DNA of 44,589 bases, from assembly GCF_000732535.1 (NCBI RefSeq), contig NZ_APNK01000029.1, positions 1 to 44,589 on the forward strand, written 5' to 3'. Each line of letters opens with the position of its first letter. Positions within the stretch are counted from its first letter, which is position 1. The notes beneath the pieces were generated by a model. The model saw nothing but the letters and a program-made list of their open reading frames with translations. It was not told the origin of the DNA and searched no databases. The translations under genes and the position numbers were made by a program. Below, one piece after another: positions 5,254 through 44,517 of the stretch. The stretch is from Salinisphaera hydrothermalis C41B8 (lineage in GTDB: Bacteria > Pseudomonadota > Gammaproteobacteria > Nevskiales > Salinisphaeraceae).

Positions 5254-7971
<2,718 letters not shown>

Positions 7972-7974
7972 AGG

Positions 7975-7980
7975 CAAAAA
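7975..7980. repeat. Possible target-site duplication, left copy (CAAAAA)
   Basis: CAAAAA here and at 8451-8456 directly flank the inverted-repeat unit. Six A-rich bases can match by chance, so this is only suggestive. Removing the unit plus one copy leaves the two metH parts in one frame (see findings). Confidence 0.3.
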
Positions 7981-7985
7981 CTTTG

Positions 7986-8020
7986 TTTATCCGCAGATGG
8001 ACGCCGATGGCCGCAGATTC
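7986..8020 (+). repeat. CCGCAGAT-type terminal repeat, left end of GxxExxY unit
   Basis: CCGCAGATGG, ACGCCGATGG and CCGCAGATTC follow one another as three successive 10-bp blocks (7991-8020). In each block GAT falls at the same place. A fourth block, ATACGGATGA, continues the phase to 8030 inside the gene's last codons. Confidence 0.75.
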
Positions 8021-8432
8021 ATACGGATGAAGATGAATGATTTAAGCGAGACCGGACTAGGCGTTTGTACTGCAGCCGCGTCTGCCCGAAATTAATCAGG
8101 AGCGCGCGTTCCAGCCCCGTCGCTTTCAAATAGTTCAGTACTTGTGCTTCTTCGATTGTGCTGAGTCGGTCGATCGCTTTGGTTTCAACGATGATCTCGT
8201 CGTAGCAGATGAAGTCGGCGCGATAGCGACATTCGAGTGTCTTTCCCTTGTACGCGATCGGCAGAGCCGGCTCGCGTGTAAAGGTAATGTCACGGTCACC
8301 GAATTCACGAGCCAGAGCTTCCTGATAGACCGGCTCGAGAAATCCGGTGCCGAGAATGCCGTGAACTTCCATTGCTGCGCCGATGACCTGATATGTCTGC
8401 GGATCGCGATCCGTTGTTTTATCTGTGGTCAT
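8019..8432 (-). CDS. GxxExxY protein (PD-(D/E)XK nuclease-like, PF13366/TIGR04256 type)
   Basis: A 137-residue protein. It carries the family signature GFLEPVY (Gly30, Glu33, Tyr36). It also has a PD-(D/E)XK-like arrangement: Asp73 in YRADF, Glu83-x-Lys85 in VETKA, and Gln97 in the helix AQVLNYLK. The fold is related to nucleases, but as far as I know no activity is established for the family. Full-length members are about 125-140 residues, so this copy looks intact. It sits alone on the metH strand between the two metH genes, embedded in an inverted-repeat unit that supplies its start codon region. The serine-rich tail (NHSSSSV) is encoded by the edge of the left repeat. In the pre-insertion order it separates genes that would otherwise be adjacent. 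Confidence 0.88.
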   Translation of the reverse strand: MTTDKTTDRDPQTYQVIGAAMEVHGILGTGFLEPVYQEALAREFGDRDITFTREPALPIAYKGKTLECRYRADFICYDEIIVETKAIDRLSTIEEAQVLNYLKATGLERALLINFGQTRLQYKRLVRSRLNHSSSSV

Positions 8433-8450
8433 CGGCGTTCATCTGCGGAT
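8418..8450 (-). repeat. CCGCAGAT-type terminal repeat, right end of GxxExxY unit
   Basis: This is the inverted partner of 7986-8020. Read on the minus strand it begins ATCCGCAGATGAACGCCGAT. The three ATC triplets at 8421, 8431 and 8441 (plus strand) are exactly 10 bp apart. It contains the start codon and first five codons of the GxxExxY gene. Confidence 0.75.
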
Positions 8451-8456
8451 CAAAAA
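8451..8456. repeat. Possible target-site duplication, right copy (CAAAAA)
   Basis: This partner of 7975-7980 lies directly between the inverted repeat and the metH N-terminal gene's stop codon (8457-8459). It could be a chance match. Confidence 0.3.
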
Positions 8457-9509
8457 TCAAGCAGAAGCCGTGAATGGCTCCAGGCCCGATAGACGCATGG
8501 CACGCTGGATATCGGGTCGCTGGCGTGGGGCCTTGCCGGCGACGGCCTGGGCGATGGCACCGATGTGCTCGGGCGTGGAGCCGCAGCAGCCCCCGGCCAT
8601 GTTGAGCAGGCCCGACTCGGCCCATTCGCCGATGTGTTCGGCCATTTCGTCCGGCGTCAGATCGTATTCGCCGAATTCGTTGGGCAGGCCGGCGTTCGGA
8701 TAGGCATGCACGTAGCACGGCGCGATCCGCGACATTTCGGCGACGTACTGGCGCAGCGCATCCGGGCCCAGCGCGCAATTCAGGCCCACGGTCAGCGGCC
8801 GGGCGTGGGAGATGGAGTTATAGAAGGCCTCGGTCGTCTGGCCCGACAGGGTACGGCCGGAGGCATCGGTGATCGTGCCCGAAATCATCAACGGGATATC
8901 CACACCCCGCTCGCGCATCAGCTTGCGCACCGCATAGATCGCGGCCTTGGCATTGAGCGTGTCGAAGATGGTCTCCATCAGGAGGATATCGACGCCCCCT
9001 TCCAGCAGGGCTTCGGCCGCCTGGCCATAGGCACCGGCCAGCTCCATGAAATCGGTGTTGCGCTTGCCCGGGTCGTTGACGTCTGGCGAAATCGAGGCGG
9101 TCTTGTTGGTCGGGCCGATCACCCCGGCGACGTAGCGCGGGTTTTCGGCGCTATCGAATTCCTCGGCCACTTCGCGGGCGAGCTTGGCCGCCGCCACGTT
9201 CAGCTCGTGGGCCAGATCTTCCATGTGGTAGTCGGCCTGGGCGATCGTGGTCGAGGAGAAGGTATTGGTGGTGATGATGTGCGCGCCGGCCTCGGCATAT
9301 TGCCGATGGATGCCCTTGATGAGCTCCGGTGAGGTCAGCGTCAGCAGGTCGTTGTTGCCCTTGAGATCGGAGGCCCAGTCGGCGAAGCGCTCGCCCCGAT
9401 AGTCTTCCTCGGACGGGTCGTGATTCTGGATCATCGTGCCCATGGCCCCGTCGATCACCAGGATCCGTTCGGACAAAACGCTCTCGATGGCCTGTCGCGT
9501 GTCGCTCAT
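8457..9509 (-). CDS. metH: Methionine synthase, homocysteine-binding half
   Basis: This 350-residue protein corresponds to the N-terminal homocysteine S-methyltransferase barrel of MetH. The zinc ligands are all present: Cys245 in GLNCALG and Cys308/Cys309 in GGCCGS, close to Escherichia coli Cys247, Cys310 and Cys311. [13 protein letters not shown] marks the N-terminus. The protein ends [12 protein letters not shown], exactly at the linker that in one-piece MetH joins the homocysteine domain to the folate domain. It binds and activates homocysteine, and the methyl group must come from the cobalamin half encoded downstream at 5254-7971. Start is ATG 9509. Split metH genes are known in some Proteobacteria, for example Xanthomonadaceae (from memory), so the arrangement is not necessarily degenerate. 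Confidence 0.96.
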
Positions 9510-9571: not shown

Positions 9572-9680
9572 AAAAATCGTTCAGCCCTTATGTGGCGCGG
9601 GCTTTGGCCGTGTCCAACCCCTGTGCGCCGAAAACGCTGTCTTGACGGCGATTCGGGGCCCGCCTAGCATCGAGGCCAAC

Positions 9681-9880
9681 TCAGGTGTCGCATCCACGGA
9701 TGCGGTGAAACGGGAAGTCGGTGCGCATGCTGCGGTATGCCAAGCCGACACTGCCCCCGCAACGGTAGGCCGCACGACGATTTTTCGTCGTGGTCGCTGC
9801 TCGAGCCACTGACGCGATGCGTCGGGAAGGCCAGCGCGCGGATTTAGCGATCCGTCGGCGAGTCCGGAGACCGGCCTGGG
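9681..9880 (+). ncRNA. Cobalamin riboswitch
   Basis: The conserved landmarks appear in order. AGGTGTCGCATCC opens the element (9683). GGTGAAACGGGAAGTCGGTG (from 9704) is the core. GCCGACACTGCCCCCGCAAC (from about 9750) is the complementary strand of the core. CCACTG and GGGAAGGCC follow. The B12-box-like TCCGGAGACCGGCCTG closes it near 9878. It binds adenosylcobalamin or related corrinoids and normally represses expression when they are plentiful. It is followed by about 130 nt of leader before btuB and probably controls btuB and the co-directional genes after it. Edges are approximate to 10 nt. Confidence 0.92.
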
Positions 9881-10009
9881 TCAGGGGAGGCCGTTGCTAC
9901 CCGCGATGCGCGCTTTCGAGCCCGAGGGTTCGTCGCGCTCGTCCTGCCATGCGACGGCTGCCGATTTCGGTACGCGGACGGGCGTGCCGCCAATCGAGAT
10001 AGAACACTA

Positions 10010-11902
10010 ATGCAGCGATATGTCCGGCGGCCCGTGTTGGCTGCCACGTTAGGGGCATGGTCCGCGCTGGCGATGGCACAGCCCGCGACGACCACCGATC
10101 TCAAGAATGTCGTGGTGACTGCGACGCGCACGCCGCAGTCGGCGGCGGATACGCTGGCCGCGACCACGGTCATTACGCGTGCCGATATCGAACGCACCCA
10201 GGCCCAGAGTCTGGCCGAACTGCTGGGCGATACGCCCAGTCTGTCGATCGCCAACAACGGCGGCCCGGGCAAGGCGACCGCGATCCATCTCCGGGGTACG
10301 GACGCCAACCAGGTGCTGGTGCTGGTCGACGGCGTGCGTTGGGGCTCGGCCACCAGCGGCCAGGCTGCTATCCAGGATTTTCCGGTCTCCCAGATCCAGC
10401 GCATCGAGATCGTACGCGGCCCGCGTTCCTCGCTGTACGGCGCCGATGCGGTCGGCGGGGTGATCCAGATCTTCACCCGCAACGGCGAGGGCGCCAAAGG
10501 CCGGGGTCCGACGCCGTATTTCTCGGTCACCGGCGGCAGCTACGATACCTGGAAAGGTCAGGCCGGCGTGTCCGGCGCAACGAAGCGCCTGCATTACAAC
10601 TTCAGTGTATCCGGCGACTACACGAGCGGCTTCAACGCCTGTACCGGCCGGCCGTTTTCGTCGCCCAAGGGCGGCGCGGGCTGCTATGCCAACCAGCCGG
10701 ATCATGACGGTTATCACCGCGAGGACGGATCCGCCAACGTCGGCTATACCTTCGACAACGGCTGGTCGATCAACGGCCACTATCTGCGGTCCGACGGCAA
10801 CACCCAGTACGACGGCAGCACCACCGACAGTTCGCATTCGGTGCAGGAAATCTATGGCCTGAGCGTGGACGCGCCGCTGACCGAATTCTGGCGCTCGAAG
10901 CTGTCGTTGTCGCGCAGCCGCGATCTGTCGAAAAATTATCTCCACGGCGACTATGTCAGCCGCTTCGATACCCGGCGCGACAGCGTGAGCTGGCAGAACG
11001 ACTTCGTGCTCGCCAAGCGTCAGAGCGCCACGCTTGGCGTCGATCATCGCCAGGATGCCGTCACCAGTTCGGCCGATTACAAGCAGAACAAACGCGACAA
11101 CACCGGCGTGTTCGGCGAATACCAGGGCCGCTTCGGTGCTCACGAGATCGATCTGGCCGCCCGCGGCGACGACAATCAGGCCTACGGCGAACATGCCACC
11201 GGCTCGGTCACCTACGGCTACCACCTGAACCAGACCTATACGCTGACCGCGTCCTACGGCAATGCCTTCAACGCGCCGACCTTCAACGATCTCTATTACC
11301 CGGACACGCCGGGCTACCCGCCGGCCTCGAACCCGGATCTGAAACCCGAGAAATCGCGCACGGGCGAAATCGGCATTAAGGCCACGCCTGGTTGGGGCCA
11401 TTGGGCCATTCATGCCTATCAGACCGATATCGACGACGAGATCACGCTGGACGCCAACTACACGCCGCAGAACGTGAATTCGGCGCGTATCCGCGGCATC
11501 GAAGGCGAAGCGACGGCGTATCTCGGGCGCTGGCGCATCGGCGCCAATGCCGACTGGCTGAAGGCCGAAAACCGGGAGCACGGTGCGAATTTTGGTAATG
11601 ATCTGGCGCGTCGGCCGGATTATTCGGCGTCGCTGCAGATCGACCGCGACCTGTTCTCGCGCTTCTCGGCGGGCGCTAGCGCCAAGCTGGTGGGCTCCAG
11701 TTACAACGATCTGGCCAATACCGACAAGCTCGGCGGCTATGCCCTGTTCGGCCTGCGCGGCGAGATGCGGGTCACCTCGGCCTGGAAAATCCAGGCCAAG
11801 CTATCGAATCTGTTCGATCGTCATTATCAGACGGTCGATTTCTACAACCAGCCGGGCCGGGCCGTGTACGTCACGGTGCGCTACTCGCCCGGCCAGATCT
11901 GA
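10010..11902 (+). CDS. btuB: TonB-dependent vitamin B12 outer membrane receptor
   Basis: A 630-residue outer membrane receptor. It has a signal peptide (residues 1-23, ending ALAMA), a TonB-box-like segment LKNVVVTATRTP, and a plug domain with IHLRGTDANQVLVLVDGVR and RIEIVRGPRSSLYG. A 22-strand type barrel follows to the C-terminus, ending YVTVRYSPGQI. It brings cobalamin and other corrinoids into the periplasm using TonB energy. Assignment to BtuB rather than a siderophore receptor rests on the cobalamin riboswitch just upstream and the corrinoid genes behind it. Start is ATG 10010. The C-terminus lacks the usual final aromatic residue. Confidence 0.93.
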   Translation: MQRYVRRPVLAATLGAWSALAMAQPATTTDLKNVVVTATRTPQSAADTLAATTVITRADIERTQAQSLAELLGDTPSLSIANNGGPGKATAIHLRGTDANQVLVLVDGVRWGSATSGQAAIQDFPVSQIQRIEIVRGPRSSLYGADAVGGVIQIFTRNGEGAKGRGPTPYFSVTGGSYDTWKGQAGVSGATKRLHYNFSVSGDYTSGFNACTGRPFSSPKGGAGCYANQPDHDGYHREDGSANVGYTFDNGWSINGHYLRSDGNTQYDGSTTDSSHSVQEIYGLSVDAPLTEFWRSKLSLSRSRDLSKNYLHGDYVSRFDTRRDSVSWQNDFVLAKRQSATLGVDHRQDAVTSSADYKQNKRDNTGVFGEYQGRFGAHEIDLAARGDDNQAYGEHATGSVTYGYHLNQTYTLTASYGNAFNAPTFNDLYYPDTPGYPPASNPDLKPEKSRTGEIGIKATPGWGHWAIHAYQTDIDDEITLDANYTPQNVNSARIRGIEGEATAYLGRWRIGANADWLKAENREHGANFGNDLARRPDYSASLQIDRDLFSRFSAGASAKLVGSSYNDLANTDKLGGYALFGLRGEMRVTSAWKIQAKLSNLFDRHYQTVDFYNQPGRAVYVTVRYSPGQI

Positions 11903-17111: not shown

Positions 17112-17210
17112 GTAGGTCGGATTAGCGCGCAGCGCGTAATCCGACGTTCAATCGGCGAGTTCCGAAACTTGGCTGTCGGATTAAGGTGCCAGCACCTAAT
17201 CCGACCTACG
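17112..17210. repeat. GTAGGTCGGATTA palindromic unit, copy 1
   Basis: This 99-bp unit has two hairpins. The left one pairs GTCGGATTA with TAATCCGAC around an inner GCGCG(C/T)AGCGCG stem. The right one pairs TCGGATTA with TAATCCGA and has an inner GGTGC/GCACC stem. The outer ends GTAGGTCGG and CCGACCTAC are also complementary, so the whole unit is an inverted repeat. Copies 2 and 3 lie at 44005 and 44347. The layout is REP/BIME-like. Confidence 0.85.
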
Positions 17211-17674
17211 TCACTGATTCGCTCACGGGGCGGACATGGCGCCGGTTTCGCGCTGCAACGCGAGTCACTTTCGTTTGCTTGTCCAAGCGAAAGTAACCCA
17301 AGGAAAAGACACCCTCATAGCCGCCCGCTTCGCGGGTCCACTCCGATGCTCGGTCCCGGAGGATGCGGCAAAAACTCAGTCCGCTTTGGCGGCCTCCACT
17401 GCTCGGTGCTGCGCTCAAGGGGACCCGAATACAGACACGGCCCGCGAAGGTTGGGCGTTCGCGTCTGTATTCGAGCCCGTCTGAGGCGCCGGAGACGAGC
17501 AGCGGCGACGGGTATCCGGCGCCGTTGCAGGCGCTCTTTTCTTGGTTGGCGCGTCAGCGCGAAACCAGAGTTCAACTCGCCCGGTGGTGCAACCCCATCC
17601 TCGATTCATCGTCCAACGCCGTCAATCCTGTTTTCGAACGGCGTGGATCGCTGGCCCCGAAAGGACTTTTTGCC
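17211..17674. repeat. Hairpin-rich intergenic repeat sequence, type not assigned
   Basis: The stem ACTTTCG..CTTG / CAAGCGAAAGT (17267-17294) is followed by AACCCAAGGAAAAG. Further on, CGAATACAGAC (17426-17436) pairs perfectly with GTCTGTATTCG (17463-17473). From memory, sequences with this AAAGTAACC..GAAAAG core are scattered between genes in many Proteobacteria, but I cannot confirm that here and know of no function. Confidence 0.45.
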
Positions 17675-43573: not shown

Positions 43574-43675
43574 TTTATCCGCAGATGACGCGGATTGCAC
43601 AGATGGCGGTTAGCCGTTGCAGGCGCGAGTTCGATCGGGGCGCGAACGGCTGTACAGGCTTCGTTTCTTAAGACG
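43574..43675 (+). repeat. CCGCAGAT-type unit, truncated copy A
   Basis: Only the left half is present. It begins TTTATCCGCAGATGACGC, contains CAGATGGCGGTTAGC, and keeps TCGGGGCGCGAACGGCTGTA. It runs straight into the left end of copy B. Confidence 0.65.
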
Positions 43676-43888
43676 CTTATCCGCAGATCGACGCAGATCC
43701 AAGCAGATGGCGGTTAATCGCTGGAGGTGTGAGTGCGATCGGGGCGCGAACTGTTGTGGACGCTTCGCTTCCCAACGAATCCTGCGAATTAGAGCTTTGT
43801 CCGACCCGGTCGCCGGTTAGTGCCCAGAATCCGCTACGCCACGAAAGCACAACCGCATCGGCGTGAATCGGTGCTGATCTGCGGACAG
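43676..43888 (+). repeat. CCGCAGAT-type gene-less unit, copy B
   Basis: This 213-bp unit has a left end CTTATCCGCAGATCGACGC and an inverted right end AATCGGTGCTGATCTGCGGA. The interior aligns along its length with copy C; a shared stretch is CGAAAGCACAACCGCATC. It is MITE-like in size and shape, with the same kind of ends as the GxxExxY unit at 7981-8450. Confidence 0.65.
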
Positions 43889-44004
43889 GTGTTTTGCCGA
43901 ACGAAGCCCGAAAAGCATGATGGCGCCCCGCGTCGTCTAGGTCGAAATATCGGTCCGCTATTCGCGTCATTCGTGTTCATTGGCGGACTGGATTCGTAGC
44001 AGCA

Positions 44005-44103
44005 GTAGGTCGGATTAGCGCGTAGCGCGTAATCCGACGCTCAATCCGCGGGTTTGAAGGCTCGGCTGTCGGATTACGGTGCAAGCACCTAATCCGACCT
44101 ACG
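44005..44103. repeat. GTAGGTCGGATTA palindromic unit, copy 2
   Basis: A 99-bp two-hairpin unit, almost identical to copy 3 (44347) and more diverged from copy 1 (17112), especially in the spacer between the hairpins. It is flanked by GCAGCA on the left and CAACT on the right, as copy 3 is. Confidence 0.85.
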
Positions 44104-44115
44104 CAACTTAAAGCA

Positions 44116-44327
44116 TTCATCCGCAGATGACGCGGATTGCGCAGATGGCGGTTAGCCGTCACAGGCGCGCGTTCGAGCGGGGCGCGAATGGCTGTATGGG
44201 CTTCGTTCCTGATCGGCTCCGCCGACTCGCAAGCTTCATTCGACGCCGCCGCTGGTTAGCGCCTCGAGTCCGCTATGCCGCGAAAGCACAACCGCATCTG
44301 TTTGAATTTGTGTTGATCTGCGGACAG
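44116..44327 (+). repeat. CCGCAGAT-type gene-less unit, copy C
   Basis: This 212-bp unit has a left end TTCATCCGCAGATGACGCGG and an inverted right end AATTTGTGTTGATCTGCGGA. It is homologous to copy B over its whole length, with scattered substitutions and small indels. Confidence 0.65.
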
Positions 44328-44346
44328 ATTTTTTTGCCCAGCAGCA

Positions 44347-44445
44347 GTAGGTCGGATTAGCGCGTAGCGCGTAATCCGACGCTCAACCCGCGGGTTTGAA
44401 GGCTCGGCTGTCGGATTACGGTGCAAGCACCTAATCCGACCTACG
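44347..44445. repeat. GTAGGTCGGATTA palindromic unit, copy 3
   Basis: Starts 342 bp after copy 2 and is nearly identical to it, which suggests a recent segmental duplication of palindromic unit plus CCGCAGAT unit. Confidence 0.85.
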
Positions 44446-44474
44446 CAACTGTATGGGCTTCGTTCCTTAAGACA

Positions 44475-44517
44475 TTTATCCGCAGATAGACGCAGATTGC
44501 GCCGATGGCGGTTAGTC
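44475..44517 (+). repeat. CCGCAGAT-type left end, copy D
   Basis: TTTATCCGCAGATAGACGC is followed by GCCGATGGCGGTTAGTC. Only the left end is recognisable before the sequence diverges near the window edge. Confidence 0.6.

What the first reader, a model, noticed from the sequence alone, without database searches (positions are those of the whole stretch)
7981..8450. GxxExxY nuclease-like gene packaged between inverted CCGCAGAT repeats, with gene-less relatives elsewhere in the window
Seen directly: a 137-codon gene with a plausible PD-(D/E)XK triad (Asp73, Glu83, Lys85) exactly fills a 470-bp unit. The unit's ends are imperfect inverted repeats of about 30 bp starting ATCCGCAGAT, and the start codon lies inside one repeat. 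Two gene-less units of 213 and 212 bp (43676-43888, 44116-44327) have the same inverted ends. Known: GxxExxY proteins belong to a PD-(D/E)XK-like family of undetermined role. Inference: this is a minimal element family in which the protein recognises or nicks the repeat ends, and the short units are non-autonomous copies.
Basis: partly seen in the sequence, partly recalled or inferred. Interest (0 to 1): 0.85.

Follow-up and report, generated by a model that had tools for sequence, protein, structure and literature searches.

The report
Iteron-flanked nuclease element splitting metH
A tiny DNA element, one nuclease gene between two inverted sets of three short repeats, sits where the methionine synthase gene is split in two, and the same design turns up in many bacterial phyla and an archaeon, which suggests an undescribed kind of self-spreading DNA.

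Summary
The GxxExxY gene (8019-8432, -) lies between two inverted arms, each of three 7-bp iterons (CRCNNAK, period 8-11). The same plan recurs: 49 of 62 Pseudomonadota units and 61 of 78 units from a scan of many phyla have matching arms, against 4 of 354 and 6 of 416 control windows. Iteron sequence and spacing agree between the two arms of a unit and follow the protein tree across phyla. The window's unit sits exactly where methionine synthase is split (MetH residues 354|355); 59 of 70 other MetH genes in a class survey are unsplit, so the unit was most likely inserted. Gene-less arms are numerous and mostly, not always, in gene-bearing genomes; G015 has 69 sites and no gene. The predicted fold resembles lambda exonuclease/Cas4. 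Best reading: a self-contained element whose nuclease recognises its own iteron ends, working like a RAYT/REP system but built on an unrelated enzyme. Binding, cutting and mobilisation are inferred, not shown. No description was found in the held library.

The parts
8019..8432 (-). GxxExxY (PDDEXK_3) gene, 137 aa; predicted nuclease with E33, D73, E83-x-K85, Q97xxxY101
8421..8452 (-). left arm (gene's 5' side): three iterons CGCAGAT / CGCCGAT / CACAGAT, period 10; start codon overlaps the middle iteron
   Evidence: triple array found by script
7987..8018 (+). right arm (gene's 3' side), inverted: TTATC + CGCAGAT / CGCCGAT / CGCAGAT, period 10; abuts the stop codon
8457..9509 (-). MetH part 1 (matches residues 6-354 of the 1234-residue model); host gene split by the unit
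5254..7971 (-). MetH part 2 (matches residues 355-1233); host gene split by the unit
43676..43888 (.). gene-less unit bounded by inverted CGCAGAT arms; part of a repeat of about 335 bp (about 43659-43994)
44116..44327 (.). second gene-less unit with the same kind of arms and related interior
43574..43604 (+). left-type arm with no partner of its own, followed by a left half-unit
   Evidence: exact site
44475..44506 (+). left-type arm near the contig end; a partner, if any, lies beyond the contig
   Evidence: exact site

Best explanation
The unit 7987-8452 is a minimal mobile (or formerly mobile) element: one gene for a small PD-(D/E)XK nuclease of lambda-exonuclease/Cas4-like fold, bounded by two inverted arms of three iterons. 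The protein binds the iterons of both arms (inferred), nicks or cuts at or near the ends (inferred), and so drives rare copying or relocation of the unit, and in trans of arm pairs without a gene, into junctions where the host tolerates it; insertion probably uses host replication or repair, since no target-site duplication was detected (inferred). Shown here: unit structure, its recurrence across phyla, agreement of the two arms with each other and with the protein lineage, position at the split of metH, and enrichment of gene-less arms in gene-bearing genomes. Between moves the unit is passed on vertically at fixed places and is often lost, leaving arm scars.
For: (1) Arms: 49 of 62 and 61 of 78 units score at least 13.5 (largest of the shuffles) against 4 of 354 and 6 of 416 control windows. 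(2) Arms match each other: spacing pattern equal in 76 of 89 units, 85% against a permuted mean of 19%; chance-corrected agreement at variable iteron positions 0.60-0.83, spacers 0.36; identity falls to background about 6 bp outside and directly inside the arms. (3) Iteron follows protein: last base 4 changes on the tree against a shuffled minimum of 14; r = 0.52 over 888 cross-phylum pairs, permuted maximum 0.285. (4) At the hslV locus of one genus, iterons end in AG in four units and nearly all in CG in three others, in both arms. (5) metH: unit between residues 354 and 355; 59 of 70 MetH frames of other genomes in the class are unsplit; a sister family (G493) is split with its own unit at the same point. 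(6) Gene-less triple arrays: 41 of 65 gene-bearing against 12 of 333 other genomes. (7) Fold and conserved residues; dN below dS in all nine pairs computed.
Against: No binding, cutting or movement was observed. G015 has 69 exact sites and no gene. Enrichment of gene-less arms rests mainly on one family, f40 (39 of 45 against 9 of 29); outside it only 2 of 20 against 3 of 304. No target-site duplication signal. 13 of 62 and 17 of 78 units fell under the arm threshold. 86 of 287 close pairs share a flanking gene, so much of the history is vertical. Linkage alone could make arms follow the gene tree. Gene-less copies in the window's genome include flanking sequence beyond the arms. Fold matches are modest (TM below 0.51).
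Confidence: 0.62

Rival explanations
1. The arms are operator or autoregulatory binding sites of a resident regulatory nuclease; nothing moves. The gene-less arms are regulatory sites or decoys.
For: The start codon overlaps an iteron in the window's unit and the nearest in-frame start lies within 12 bp of the inner end of the left arm in 43 of 85 units. Positions are conserved within genera and families.
Against: An operator does not need a matching inverted copy after the stop codon (median gap 8 bp). The unit interrupts metH, which is unsplit in 59 of 70 other genomes. Gene-less arms pair head to head, 21 '+-' and 0 '-+'.
Confidence: 0.13
2. A nuclease gene homed into pre-existing inverted repeats; the gene-less pairs are its empty target sites.
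For: Gene-less pairs without related interior exist; in L155 a left-arm copy with its flank stands alone beside the full unit.
Against: At metH the unsplit relatives whose linker was read (L293, L294, L296) code straight through it, without arms, so gene and arms are new there together. Iteron types follow the gene's tree, not the phylum.
Confidence: 0.1
3. The repeats are spread by another, unseen factor, and GxxExxY is a passenger or a tamed guard of such repeats.
For: G015: 69 sites, no gene. 12 of 333 genomes without the gene have triple arrays; two of them (G259, G306) show only same-direction arrays in the one locus viewed of each and may be chance.
Against: The gene itself lies between cognate arms in most loci of two surveys, and protein and iteron types correlate across phyla.
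Confidence: 0.1
4. It is a defence, toxin or phage gene and the repeats are incidental.
For: Small nuclease, patchy distribution (65 of 398 genomes).
Against: PADLOC: no family for the two proteins scanned. PHROGs: only E 0.19 for one of them. tblastn with one homologue: no match in 50,697 phage records; with two queries: 8 of 72,556 plasmid records each. Arm statistics as above.
Confidence: 0.05

Closest known systems
REPtron: RAYT (TnpA-REP) with REP/REPIN/BIME repeats (PMC2817692, PMC3116915, PMC8266576; abstracts and section lists seen)
   Same: One gene flanked by two inverted cognate repeats; repeats and protein co-vary; many gene-less copies, often as inverted pairs, enriched where the gene is present; mostly vertical inheritance.
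   Different: RAYT is a HuH tyrosine transposase acting on palindromic single-stranded REP; here the protein is a PD-(D/E)XK nuclease and the ends are non-palindromic triple iterons, period 8-11.
lambda exonuclease / Cas4 / RecB-AddB-RecE nucleases
   Same: Closest solved folds (4ic1, 3syy, 3slp, 4ceh, 3h4r); E-D-ExK-QxxxY pattern (the link of QxxxY to this group is recalled).
   Different: About 130 residues, no helicase or partner domain seen, carried between its own inverted iteron arms; no sequence match in PDB at E <= 1.
MITEs and their DDE transposases
   Same: Autonomous unit and short non-autonomous units sharing ends.
   Different: No target-site duplication signal; no DDE transposase in the unit; ends are iteron arrays.
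Free-standing homing endonucleases
   Same: Single small nuclease gene at fixed insertion points in conserved genes.
   Different: Inverted arms travel with the gene, and gene-less arm pairs are multiplied in the genome.

Membership tests
GxxExxY / PDDEXK_3 protein family | Match above the curated cut-off of TIGR04256 and PF13366 | tested here: met
   143.9 bits against 35; 134.8 against 22
PD-(D/E)XK nuclease superfamily | Core fold with D and ExK | tested here: met
   D73 and K85 invariant and E83 nearly invariant in 40 sequences; model pLDDT 89.2; Foldseek hits are PD-(D/E)XK nucleases but TM below 0.51. Activity itself was not testable.
REPtron (RAYT/REP) | Gene flanked by two inverted cognate repeats | tested here: met
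REPtron (RAYT/REP) | Repeats co-vary with the protein | tested here: met
REPtron (RAYT/REP) | Abundance of gene-less repeats correlates with presence of the gene | tested here: inconclusive
   41 of 65 against 12 of 333 overall, but driven by family f40, and G015 is an exception
REPtron (RAYT/REP) | HuH tyrosine transposase | tested here: not met
   The protein matches TIGR04256 and PF13366 alone and folds as a PD-(D/E)XK nuclease
REPtron (RAYT/REP) | Each repeat is a palindrome | tested here: not met
   Arms are direct triple iterons; only the pair is inverted
IS / MITE with DDE transposase | Target-site duplication | tested here: not met
   No excess at any fixed offset for 4 bp or more in 87 units; direct repeats of score 9 or more in 2 of 86. 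Old insertions could have lost them.
Known anti-phage defence | Match to a PADLOC model | tested here: not met
   0 families for the 2 proteins scanned

The most novel reading that the evidence does not exclude
GxxExxY units are a separate class of autonomous mobile element in bacteria and archaea: a single small lambda-exonuclease/Cas4-like nuclease that reads triple-iteron ends, mobilises itself and gene-less arm pairs without target-site duplication, evolves new end specificities in step with all six to eight iterons, and can split host genes at domain linkers, here giving a two-piece methionine synthase.
Probability: 0.45. Interest if true: 0.92.

Novelty: categorically new. Interest (0 to 1): 0.85.

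Why it matters
If right, a very common but unassigned protein family gets a role, a large set of short dispersed repeats in environmental genomes gets an explanation, and there is a second, independent solution to the REPtron idea with a different enzyme. The strict protein-iteron pairing makes specificity directly testable, and the metH case shows a small element splitting an essential-pathway enzyme at a domain boundary.

Tried and rejected
Target-site duplication: no consistent signal. Two single cases: L132 has an 11-of-12 direct repeat near both ends, L155 a perfect 27-bp direct repeat that on inspection continues into a second left arm, so it looks like a partial tandem copy. Plasmid and phage relatives for empty sites: 8 of 72,556 plasmid records for each of two queries, no phage record for one query, so strain-level empty sites were not available. 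RNA-stem role of the arms: not modelled; stronger agreement of iterons than of spacers argues for a protein reading DNA, but a spacer kappa of 0.36 is not zero. Defence reading: no PADLOC match. Residues that may set specificity: position 100 tracks the last iteron base, position 13 the fifth, but this is confounded by ancestry and is only a lead. Gene-less units as plain deletion copies of the gene unit: rejected for the window's two. Literature: searches gave no account of the repeats or the unit; one search (split MetH) returned only unrelated papers because the terms matched other words. The library lacks most subscription journals and preprints.

The direct iteron-search pattern covers only AG-type iterons with a first period of 9. 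Of 59 hslV matches only 30 loci were viewed. Some control windows above threshold belong to L205, which has a second unit nearby. The class survey of MetH took the open-frame length as the sign of a split; the 11 short frames other than G493 were not opened, and some may be contig ends.

Full report
OBSERVATION. The 137-aa ORF at 8019-8432 (-) is a GxxExxY protein. Read, it lies between 7987-8018 and 8421-8452, two inverted arms of three 7-bp iterons each at period 10. One arm touches the stop codon and the start codon overlaps the middle iteron of the other. ATCCGCAGAT within one mismatch occurs 15 times in the window against a shuffled mean of 4.26. Exact TATCCGCAGAT occurs 41 times in the genome and the reversed control not at all.

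THE PLAN IS GENERAL. In the family (17 genomes) 9 genomes hold 15 such genes, at three kinds of place: between metH parts, between carA and carB, and one elsewhere. Most of them have visible arms; L038 and L039 have one degraded arm, and L041 and L045 lie at contig ends. The metH-type iteron is CGCAGAT, the carAB type CGCAAAT/CGCGAAT, the third CGCAAAG. In a draw of 398 Pseudomonadota genomes 65 have the gene. Best inverted match between flanks: 49 of 62 units reach 13.5, the largest score of 186 shuffled pairs; 4 of 354 windows placed elsewhere in the same loci do. For the 80 best loci of the genome-contig scan, 61 of 78 tested units reach it, against 6 of 416 control windows. Units with clear triples that could be named come from 11 phyla, one archaeal.

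THE ARMS BELONG TOGETHER AND TO THE PROTEIN. Of 146 units, 89 have clear triples in both arms. Periods are 9 (151 times), 8 (118), 10 (75) and 11 (12). The pair of periods is equal in both arms in 76 of 89, 85%, permuted mean 19% and maximum 31%. In those 76, left-right identity is 0.92 at iteron positions, 0.62 in spacers, 0.95-0.99 at the two bases outside, and near background beyond six bases outside or just inside. Chance-corrected agreement is 0.60-0.83 at variable iteron positions and 0.36 in spacers; iterons are as alike between arms (6.37 of 7) as within an arm (6.39). On a tree of 88 proteins (few columns, many forks unresolved) the last iteron base changes 4 times against a shuffled minimum of 14, the whole 7-mer 42 against 55, the spacing 25 against 39; position 4 taken alone is within the shuffled range (26, shuffled minimum 25). 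Phylum labels change 24 times against a shuffled minimum of 25. Over 888 cross-phylum pairs protein identity and iteron identity correlate at 0.52, permuted maximum 0.285. Linkage by common descent explains part of this. A closer case is the hslV locus in one genus: four units (L263, L265, L273, L285) have iterons ending in AG in both arms and three (L268, L269, L274) have iterons ending in CG in both arms, 23 of 24 by my count of the printed arms.

INSERTION. NCBIfam places the ORF upstream of the unit at MetH residues 6-354 and the ORF downstream at 355-1233 of one 1234-residue model. In a class survey, 77 of 114 genomes match the start of the second part; of 70 strong matches outside the window's genome, 59 have an open frame of at least 1196 aa. 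In the three unsplit relatives opened (L293, L294, L296) the linker reads straight through. In the window's family the 15 genomes with MetH part 2 are all split: 8 have the gene at the junction, 3 have traces (G013 degenerate gene with right arm, G016 right arm, G001 an arm-like piece), G005, G006 and G014 show no trace, and G015 holds other ORFs. A sister family of the same order, G493, is split at the same point and has its own GxxExxY gene with CGCAGAT arms there. The simplest account is insertion of the unit into the linker before these families parted, with later losses. At carA|carB, five of 17 genomes have the gene and two of another genus show remnants. At hslV, of 30 loci viewed, five have the unit right after hslV, one a truncated gene, two a unit further downstream, and L267 only a piece of right arm.

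GENE-LESS ARMS. In the family, at least five exact TATCCGCAGAT sites occur in 7 of 8 genomes with the metH-type gene and 1 of 9 others, the exception being G015 with 69. G015 has no TIGR04256 match even at E <= 10. In 398 genomes a triple-array pattern is present in 41 of 65 with the gene and 12 of 333 without; reversed control 0 throughout; within family f40 39 of 45 against 9 of 29; outside it 2 of 20 against 3 of 304. Copy numbers reach 156 sites (G140, two gene matches). Some pairs are only 64-70 bp long, near-hairpins. Adjacent exact sites in three genomes are 21 '+-', 12 '++', 10 '--', 0 '-+'. The window's two gene-less units belong to a diverged repeat of about 335 bp; others, here and in G015, have unrelated interiors of 72-224 bp.

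PROTEIN. In 40 sequences G28, G30, E33, Y36, D73, K85, Q97 and Y101 are invariant and E83 nearly so. AlphaFold2 gives pLDDT 89.2 and pTM 0.81. Best PDB folds are Cas4 SSO0001 (E 1.8e-4), LHK-Exo (2.4e-4), lambda exonuclease, AddAB and RecE, all with TM below 0.51. That QxxxY marks the RecB/Cas4 group is recalled. No PDB sequence match at E <= 1. dN was below dS in all nine pairs computed; dS was saturated in four. Plasmid hits are 8 of 72,556 records for each of two queries and phage hits none for one query.

MECHANISM. Shown: unit, arms, their agreement, insertion at metH, enrichment of gene-less arms. Inferred: the protein reads the iterons, cuts at the ends, and copies or moves units using host repair, since no target-site duplication was found. 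Comparison: it works like the RAYT/REP system as described in the abstracts of PMC2817692, PMC3116915 and PMC8266576, but it is not a member: the enzyme and the repeat form differ. In the held library no paper describing the unit or its repeats was found. Confidence in the main reading is 0.62, lowered by the lack of any activity data, by G015, and by the weight of one family in the enrichment.

Noticed in passing
window 5254-9509: Methionine synthase is in two pieces, split at residues 354|355 of the model; both pieces look intact.
   Followed up: yes
window 9666-9893: Cobalamin riboswitch on the + strand (100.2 bits), ahead of a 630-aa ORF at 10010-11902 and not ahead of the minus-strand metH.
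   Followed up: no
window 44008-44108, 44344-44447 and 17112-17215: A second palindromic repeat beginning GTAGGTCGGATTA, about 90% identical between places; it looks like a GTAG-type REP (recalled).
   Followed up: no
L056 (G015), metH junction: In the genome with 69 sites and no gene, the junction between the metH parts holds two small ORFs that look like a DinJ-YafQ type toxin-antitoxin pair (recalled likeness, no family search).
   Followed up: no
L155:2906-3480: A 27-bp direct repeat plus left arm stands on both sides of the unit, so a left arm without its gene follows the full unit: a partial tandem copy.
   Followed up: partly
L041 and L045 (G011): Two different GxxExxY genes at two contig ends, one after metH part 1 and one before metH part 2; perhaps tandem units at the same junction.
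   Followed up: no
L107, L092 and neighbours (family f40): Units with shared flanking genes whose edges suggest a junction in a biosynthetic operon (trp genes by recall).
   Followed up: no
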